DNA from: Perkinsus chesapeaki
Taxonomy: Eukaryota; Perkinsozoa; Perkinsida; Perkinsidae
NCBI GenBank assembly: GCA_013115145.1
Contig: JAAPAO010000146.1
Span: forward strand, 1 to 62,667
Length of the DNA: 62,667 bases
Direction: 5' to 3'
A program made the translations under genes and the position numbers. Below the pieces are notes generated by a model. It was not told the DNA's origin, ran no database searches, and worked only from the letters and a program-made list of their open reading frames with translations. Position 1 is the stretch's first letter, and each line of letters begins with the position of its first letter. Positions 3,486 to 4,134 of this stretch are shown here, one piece after another.

Positions 3486-4134
3486 TTACTCCTCATCCTC
3501 ACCCTTAATAAGGTAAGTCATGGAGCACTTGCCGCAGTAGTAACGGTTGAAGTGGTTGGCCATGAAGACACCGGCACCACAAGAGGAGTTGGGGCACTGC
3601 TTGCGGAGGCGCTGGACCTTGTTGTCGGCATCGACCTTGTAGAACTTCAAGGTGGCGAGCTTGACGTTCTTATGCTTATGCTTGTTCTTCTTGGGGGCGG
3701 TGTAAGTCTTCTTCTTACGCTTCTTGCCACCTCCCAAAAGATCCAAGTTGAGAGCAAGGACGGAATCCTGAAAAGAACGAGCTTGAAGCATGCACGAAAG
3801 AGAGGAAGAAGATCCACCAAACACGACCTCCACCATCCAAACCCTTATTATTACATCAGTGATTCCGGCATGAGCGAGCAGAACCTCGTCTTCGAGAGCG
3901 GCACCGGCGAAGAGAATGCGCTGGTCCTCAACAGGGATGCCTTCAGCGGCCTACGCAACGAAACAATAACGATGCGATCCTCGACAACCGATGGCAAGCC
4001 AAATCAGAGCAGCAAGCGTTTAGTTATCAACCAGTTTCTATTATCACCTGCACGCGGGCCTTCACATCGGCGACAGTGGTGGCACCGTTAACGGCAACGG
4101 TGTTGCCAGTAAGTGAGCGGACGAAAACTTGCAT
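3486..4134 (-). CDS. RPS27A: Ubiquitin-like (FUBI-like) domain fused to ribosomal protein eS31 (S27a)
   Basis: Precursor of small-subunit ribosomal protein eS31 with an N-terminal ubiquitin-fold domain. Three exons read on the minus strand: 4134-4048, 3950-3855, 3767-3486; together 154 residues. Residues 1-75 start MQVFVRSLTGNTVAVNG and end LLGGG. The eS31 part starts KKRKKKTYTAPKKNKHK and has the C-x4-C (CPNSSC) and C-x2-C (CGKC) zinc pairs. The ubiquitin part lacks Lys6, 11, 29, 33, 48 and 63 and does not end in LRLRGG. Its LEDE and LLGGGK segments resemble FUBI, the domain normally fused to eS30. The double Gly before the basic stretch should still allow cleavage. The gene stands alone on the minus strand between plus-strand genes. 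Confidence 0.9.

What the first reader, a model, noticed from the sequence alone, without database searches (positions are those of the whole stretch)
3486..4134. eS31 carries a FUBI-like domain instead of ubiquitin
In most eukaryotes eS31 is made as a fusion with perfect ubiquitin, and FUBI is fused to eS30. Here the N-terminal 75 residues keep the ubiquitin fold but lack Lys6, 11, 29, 33, 48 and 63, and the end is LLGGG, closer to FUBI (LEDE... LGGK). So this gene cannot supply working ubiquitin. Either the FUBI partner has been swapped between two ribosomal proteins, or the ubiquitin moiety has decayed in this lineage.
Basis: partly seen in the sequence, partly recalled or inferred. Interest (0 to 1): 0.75.

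Follow-up and report, generated by a model that had tools for sequence, protein, structure and literature searches.

The report
Diverged ubiquitin fused to Perkinsus eS31
In this single-celled parasite (a Perkinsus) the ubiquitin normally attached to one ribosomal protein has changed so far that it can probably no longer act as ubiquitin; this is known from many unrelated microbes and does not look like a swap with the animal protein FUBI.

Summary
The gene is real: minus strand 4134-3486, two introns, 154 aa, the only eS31 match in a 35.4 Mb assembly, 97% identical to a Perkinsus olseni protein. Its 74-residue N-terminal domain is predicted to have the ubiquitin fold. It has one lysine (at the Lys27 position), Asp for Arg72, and GG just before eS31. 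The same genome has seven identical canonical ubiquitin repeats and a canonical Ub-eL40.

The FUBI reading is not supported. FUBI's conserved Val40, Pro47 and Arg70 are Arg, Ala and Asp here. The two-residue deletion sits elsewhere. FAU's junction intron is absent. Intron 2 lies where Plasmodium Ub-S27a has one. Profiles of three groups of eS31-fused domains fit better than FUBI. Against this, domain trees put Perkinsus beside FUBI with weak support, rejecting none of the alternatives validly tested.

Divergent ubiquitin on eS31 is known from nematodes and many protists. Possibly new: new lysines are rare in these domains, 13 of 3430 changed residues, against 63 of 1281 in free Ub-like repeats of this genome.

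The parts
4048..4134 (-). exon 1 of the Ubl-eS31 gene: domain residues 1-29, including the only domain lysine (K25 = Ub K27)
3951..4047 (-). intron 1, 97 nt, GT-AG, after domain codon 29 (Ub codon 31), phase 0
3855..3950 (-). exon 2: domain residues 30-61
3768..3854 (-). intron 2, 87 nt, GT-AG, after domain codon 61 (= after Ub codon 63), phase 0; the place given for one of the two introns of Plasmodium UbS27a
   Evidence: PMC10457151
3729..3767 (-). exon 3, first part: domain residues 62-74, ending D70-L-L-G-G (D70 = Ub R72, L72 = Ub R74)
3486..3728 (-). exon 3, rest: ribosomal protein eS31 (80 aa, GKKRKKK...GEDEE) and stop; no intron at the domain junction

Best explanation
This is the eS31 (RPS27A) gene of a Perkinsus species, the only one found. 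Its N-terminal domain is the ubiquitin moiety of an ordinary Ub-eS31 fusion that escaped homogenisation with polyubiquitin and diverged in place. Most likely mechanism: the precursor is made with a ubiquitin-like cap that helps eS31 to be synthesised or kept soluble; a deubiquitinase cuts after G74 and releases eS31 starting GKKRKKK. The freed domain cannot enter conjugation, because Asp replaces the Arg72 that the ubiquitin E1 selects for, and cannot be extended into chains, because only the poorly accessible K27 position still has a lysine. Ubiquitin comes from the seven-repeat polyubiquitin gene and Ub-eL40. Shown by computation: gene structure, eS31 fusion, residue losses, canonical Ub genes elsewhere in the genome, the same kind of fusion in other lineages; predicted: the Ub fold. 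Inferred: cleavage, the cap role, failure at E1.
For: One eS31 match in G000; polyubiquitin with 7 identical canonical repeats and a canonical Ub-eL40 in the same genome. Divergent Ub domains on eS31 in named dinoflagellates, chlorophytes, Mucoromycota and a nematode: 79 of 113 extracted domains besides the Perkinsus one were divergent. The literature describes this for Caenorhabditis and 12 further species, apicomplexans included (PMC10457151). Intron 2 coincides with the UbS27a intron 'after codon 63' of Plasmodium. The window domain scores higher against chlorophyte (88.0 bits), Mucoromycota (83.7) and dinoflagellate-like (82.2) eS31-fused profiles than against FUBI (78.8) or canonical Ub (64.5). 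AlphaFold2 model of the P. olseni protein: pLDDT 91-94 in blocks of ten over residues 1-70; the 50 Foldseek hits listed (of 1468) are ubiquitin. Variants selected with the ubiquitin E1 all kept Arg72 (PMC3731359). In yeast the Ub moiety of Ub-eS31 aids efficient expression (PMC8122580) and the precursor is cut before assembly (PMC11274626).
Against: Trees of the domain place Perkinsus next to FUBI with weak support (88/89; 78/85) rather than with dinoflagellates, the expected relatives; AU tests allow the dinoflagellate grouping (p 0.37 and 0.39) but do not show it. One of two introns coincides with Plasmodium; intron 1 does not. The Ub-eL40 gene of the same genome has an intron one base away, so the region may be intron-prone. 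Cleavage and loss of E1 activation are untested. In Giardia the divergent Ub-S27a is reported not to be cleaved (PMC3684764). The review seen thinks a direct role of the moiety in assembly unlikely, and unfused eS31 works in yeast when overexpressed, so the cap may matter little.
Confidence: 0.8

Rival explanations
1. FUBI swap: a FUBI domain (from an ancestral FUBI-eS30 gene or from a mollusc host) replaced ubiquitin on eS31.
For: Same length (74), a single lysine at the K27 position, L at Ub position 74; trees join Perkinsus and FUBI at 88/89 and 78/85.
Against: V40, P47 and R70, conserved in FUBI (PMC10611586; V or I, P and R together in 112 of 116 rows), are R, A and D. The deletion scores best after residue 14 here, but after residues 6-9 in 93 of 116 FUBI rows (22 of 116 at 13-16, 1 at 5). 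The junction intron typical of FAU (PMC4515611) is absent. FUBI is described as holozoan. Length 74 and L74 also occur in chlorophyte eS31 fusions.
Confidence: 0.05
2. Ancient paralogue: a lysine-poor Ubl was already on eS31 in early eukaryotes, FUBI is its relative on eS30, and lineages with perfect Ub-eS31 regained it by gene conversion from polyubiquitin.
For: Six group consensus sequences share 12 kept and 18 lost positions, and share G60 and V23 in all six and D or E at 63 in five; the window domain fits the eS31-fused profiles about equally.
Against: The deletions differ in place between groups; many dinoflagellate-like domains have 76 residues; shared states may simply be the stable choice for a relaxed Ub fold (inference); canonical and divergent forms both occur among green algae (Tetraselmis against Coccomyxa) and animals (Mytilus against Gnathostoma), which needs repeated restoration. 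The tree was not rooted.
Confidence: 0.1
3. Uncut structural domain, as reported for Giardia: the Ubl stays on eS31 in the ribosome.
For: Giardia precedent (PMC3684764, passage).
Against: L-L-G-G before the eS31 start is intact; GG is kept in 120 of 120 listed relatives, a list ranked by similarity.
Confidence: 0.05

Closest known systems
Divergent ubiquitin-S27a (eS31) fusions: Caenorhabditis, Plasmodium, Toxoplasma, Cryptosporidium and Giardia UbS27a (from PMC10457151 and PMC3684764; original papers not read)
   Same: Same partner protein, same N-terminal place, strongly divergent Ub fold; normal polyubiquitin and Ub-eL40 in the same genome, as in P. falciparum; one shared intron place with Plasmodium
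   Different: New genus; 74 residues where Plasmodium keeps Ub length; Giardia's is said not to be cleaved
FUBI (FAU, FUBI-eS30)
   Same: 74 residues, one lysine at K27, L at Ub position 74, GG end, fused to a 40S protein
   Different: Other ribosomal partner; lacks V40, P47, R70; deletion at another place; no junction intron
Canonical ubiquitin on eS31
   Same: Gene architecture and fold; 35 of 74 residues identical
   Different: Six lysines, R72, R74 and V70 lost

Membership tests
Divergent Ub-eS31 fusion | Ub-fold domain N-terminal to eS31 in one reading frame | tested here: met
   (fold predicted, on the P. olseni protein)
Divergent Ub-eS31 fusion | Domain strongly divergent from the polyubiquitin and Ub-eL40 of the same genome | tested here: met
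   35/74 identity to canonical Ub; own polyUb and Ub-eL40 canonical
Divergent Ub-eS31 fusion | GG before the eS31 start (processing site) | tested here: met
Divergent Ub-eS31 fusion | Domain groups with that of the nearest relatives (dinoflagellates) | tested here: inconclusive
   AU p 0.37 and 0.39; best trees place it elsewhere
FUBI | Fused to eS30 | tested here: not met
   fused to eS31
FUBI | Conserved V40 and P47 | tested here: not met
   R40, A47
FUBI | RXLGG tail | tested here: not met
   DLLGG
FUBI | Two-residue deletion near the N terminus | tested here: not met
   deletion of the same size but best placed after residue 14; 93 of 116 FUBI rows 6-9, 22 of 116 at 13-16
FUBI | Phe4 and C-terminal GG | tested here: met
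   not specific, shared with ubiquitin
FUBI | Clade with FUBI in a tree of the domain | tested here: inconclusive
   88/89 and 78/85, unstarred; alternatives not rejected
Conjugatable ubiquitin | Arg72 for the ubiquitin E1 | tested here: not met
   Asp; role of Arg72 from PMC3731359
Conjugatable ubiquitin | Activation by E1 in an assay | not testable with these tools
   needs bench work

The most novel reading that the evidence does not exclude
Ub moieties on eS31 (and FUBI on eS30) are not decaying: several lineages independently turned them into the same kind of part, a cleavable cap selected to be invisible to the ubiquitin system. Surface lysines are lost and new ones avoided, the tail residues at 72 and/or 74 change, while fold, the K27 lysine, Phe4 and GG stay. 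Perkinsus is one more case.
Probability: 0.4. Interest if true: 0.55.

Novelty: new member of a known kind. Interest (0 to 1): 0.3.

Why it matters
It removes a suggested partner swap and places Perkinsus among the lineages whose Ub-eS31 no longer makes ubiquitin. The lysine pattern makes a testable point about why a ribosomal protein carries a Ub-like cap at all: fold, cleavage site and non-conjugability appear to be kept while ubiquitin identity is not, which would argue for a role in cis for eS31 over a role in ubiquitin supply.

Tried and rejected
FUBI homology by length: rejected, because 74-residue domains recur in chlorophytes, in two dinoflagellate-like rows (P0014, P0020) and in one Mucoromycota row (P0075), and the deletion places differ. 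Domain tree as arbiter: rejected, 76 columns resolve nothing between groups; Perkinsus with dinoflagellates, chlorophytes, Mucoromycota or canonical Ub all p above 0.3; the test with the nematode did not finish and was not repeated. In one search I mislabelled four chlorophyte-type rows (P0072, P0076, P0099, P0102) as dinoflagellate-like; the two AU rejections there that used those labels are void and were redone with corrected labels. Search by the domain alone found only two P. olseni proteins among 21 candidates; the method needs shared five-letter words, so this shows only that no close relative was reached. eS30 in the assembly: not found with Pfam PF04758, human-type eS30, an alveolate-like eS30, or one DNA pattern; with split exons this proves nothing, and the Pfam ubiquitin search missed even the window's own gene. 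Passive decay as the whole story: weakened, but the window alone (0 new lysines among about 40 changes, chance 0.13) shows nothing by itself, and rows within groups are not independent.

Rows dropped: of 120 listed eS31 hits (of 1015 found) 114 gave a clean domain; of 120 listed FAU-type hits (of 4112 found) 119 did; 3 of those (P0126, P0131, P0228) carry canonical Ub and were left out of FUBI counts, leaving 116 (still counts 119, the identity median too). Of 38 tandem repeats 36 were used. Group labels: the 54 'dinoflagellate-like' rows are those left after removing other groups; 11 bear dinoflagellate names; 26 of the 54 were put in the tree and formed one clade (99/96). Of 14 chlorophyte-type rows three (P0067, P0076, P0104) and of 8 Mucoromycota-type rows three (P0071, P0080, P0100) are unnamed and were placed by resemblance; each set of 14 and 8 is one clade. 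Two further divergent rows (P0030, P0032) were left out of the group comparisons.

Full report
What is there. The minus strand at 4134-3486 encodes a 154-residue protein in three exons with GT-AG introns. Residues 1-74 form a ubiquitin-like domain and 75-154 are eS31. A protein of Perkinsus olseni is 97% identical over the full length, so the window is from a Perkinsus; the species is not settled. After that protein and a partial P. olseni one, the 120 listed hits are other eS31 fusions, among them named dinoflagellates, green algae, Mucoromycota and animals, mostly at 55-64%.

The rest of the genome. The window's assembly G000 has 35.4 Mb in 884 contigs. A Pfam search for eS31 finds this gene alone, with 2 candidates scored. 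Ubiquitin is encoded elsewhere: a polyubiquitin gene with seven identical repeats on C69 and a Ub-eL40 gene on C133 whose ubiquitin keeps all seven lysines and LRLRGG. eS30 was not found by four searches; the tool warns that an empty answer shows nothing without a positive control. The Pfam ubiquitin search did not list even the window's own gene, whose domain is cut by introns, so a FUBI-eS30 gene could be missed too. The fusion state of eS30 is unknown.

The domain. Aligned to ubiquitin it keeps 35 of 74 residues. Its one lysine is at Ub position 27; positions 6, 11, 29, 33, 48 and 63 are R, N, R, A, A and D; R72 is D, R74 is L, V70 is N, I44 is L; L8, R42 and GG are kept. An AlphaFold2 model of the P. 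olseni protein has pLDDT 91-94 in blocks of ten over residues 1-70, and the 50 Foldseek matches listed (of 1468) are ubiquitin. R72 is the gate-keeping residue for the ubiquitin E1: variants selected with that E1 all kept it (PMC3731359, passages). So the released domain is unlikely to be conjugated as ubiquitin; this is inference.

Is it FUBI? FUBI's conserved features over 156 species are the Phe4 patch, an RXLGG tail, Val40 and Pro47 (PMC10611586, passages). Of 116 FUBI rows held here, 112 have V or I, P and R at the three specific places; the window and P. olseni have none of the three. No row among 54 dinoflagellate-like, 14 chlorophyte-type, 8 Mucoromycota-type and 1 nematode eS31 domains has all three, though single ones occur (R72 in 14 of 14 chlorophyte-type rows and in the nematode, P49 in 6 of 8 Mucoromycota-type and 4 of 54 dinoflagellate-like rows, V42 in 1 of 54; Ub numbering). 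The two-residue deletion scores best after residue 14 in the window and P. olseni and after 6-9 in 93 of 116 FUBI rows; 22 FUBI rows place it at 13-16 and 1 at 5. In FAU genes the most conserved intron separates the two domains (PMC4515611, passages); here exon 3 runs through the junction. Intron 2 falls after Ub codon 63, a place given for one of two introns of Plasmodium UbS27a (PMC10457151); the other intron does not match. By my rough count, from no call, one such coincidence among two and two introns in 228 bases has a chance of about 2%, less telling if the region is intron-prone, as the Ub-eL40 intron one base away suggests. FUBI-eS30 is described as conserved in holozoans (PMC8354635, passages).

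What speaks for FUBI. Two maximum-likelihood trees of the domain set Perkinsus beside FUBI at 88/89 (43 rows) and 78/85 (77 rows). Neither is starred, and tests do not reject Perkinsus with dinoflagellates (p 0.37, 0.39), chlorophytes (0.47), Mucoromycota (0.58) or canonical ubiquitin (0.31, 0.38). The FUBI rows came from a search whose query held the window domain joined to human-type eS30, which favours FUBI rows that resemble the window; the named ones are vertebrates, apart from two labelled as bacteria (probably contamination). Mollusc FUBI was not sampled. Profile scores rank the window higher with chlorophyte-type (88.0), Mucoromycota-type (83.7) and dinoflagellate-like (82.2) eS31 domains than with FUBI (78.8) or canonical ubiquitin (64.5).

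What it is. Divergent ubiquitin on S27a was described in Caenorhabditis and then in 12 other species, three apicomplexans among them (Jones and Candido 1993; Catic and Ploegh 2005, both as told in PMC10457151, of which I saw part 1 of section 3, section 5 and part 1 of section 7; originals not read). Plasmodium falciparum UbS27a shares only 24 of 76 residues with its ubiquitin. A paper on algae reports a similar case in Guillardia theta (PMC6332867, passages). A library search for Perkinsus with ubiquitin and S27a found no paper. So this is a new member of a known kind. For the role of the cap, reviews say that in yeast the Ub moiety aids efficient expression of eS31, that unfused eS31 works if overexpressed, and that the precursor is cut before assembly (PMC8122580 and PMC11274626, passages).

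Something more general. Across six group consensus sequences (Perkinsus, dinoflagellate-like, chlorophyte-type, Mucoromycota-type, nematode, FUBI) 12 positions are kept in all six, among them M1, F4, V5, K27, Q41, L73, G75 and G76; 18 are lost in all six, among them K11, K29, K33, K63, V70 and R74. Lysine is rarely regained: in the four eS31-fused groups pooled (Perkinsus 2 rows, 54, 14, 8) 13 of 3430 changed residues are lysine against 198 arginine, and in FUBI 5 of 5320 against 156. In 36 free tandem Ub-like repeats of this genome 63 of 1281 are lysine and 92 arginine, and in the eS31 part of the same proteins lysine makes 11%, 8%, 5% and 7% of changes (dinoflagellate-like, chlorophyte-type, Mucoromycota-type, Perkinsus). 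Rows are related, so the Fisher values printed there overstate the case, but the pattern recurs in each group with enough changes to see it. Loss of the old lysines is a weaker signal: 5 of 6 non-K27 lysines are kept by at most one group, against 22 of 70 other positions (p 0.02) and 18 of 44 polar ones (p 0.06). Three otherwise near-canonical Ub-eS31 fusions already have altered tails (LELLGG, LALLGG, LRLLGG; 3 of 34), which hints that the tail may change early. That FUBI keeps a single lysine at K27 is in print. For eS31 domains I saw no statement of the lysine point in the listings and passages; the 2005 paper was not readable here, so priority is open.

Conclusion.

Noticed in passing
G000 contigs C542:10476-19362, C737:131-5029 and 11765-12185, C487:23317-24672, C124:9483-11006 (loci L015, L016, L017, L020, L022): Clusters of long open frames (about 270-580 aa) made of tandem, strongly divergent ubiquitin-like repeats with many lysines; they may be a lineage-specific gene family, which was not tested.
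   Followed up: partly
window 127-1267 and 2042-3153: Tandem duplicate of a short-chain dehydrogenase-like gene (TGGASGLGE motif, name recalled), 79% identical over 1153 bases.
   Followed up: no
G000:C667:16156-16418 (L018): A NEDD8-like or second ubiquitin-like gene matched in two frames, as if split by an intron, ending LQLRGG.
   Followed up: no
P0003, P0011, P0081: Near-canonical ubiquitin on eS31 whose tail has already changed to LELLGG, LALLGG or LRLLGG.
   Followed up: partly
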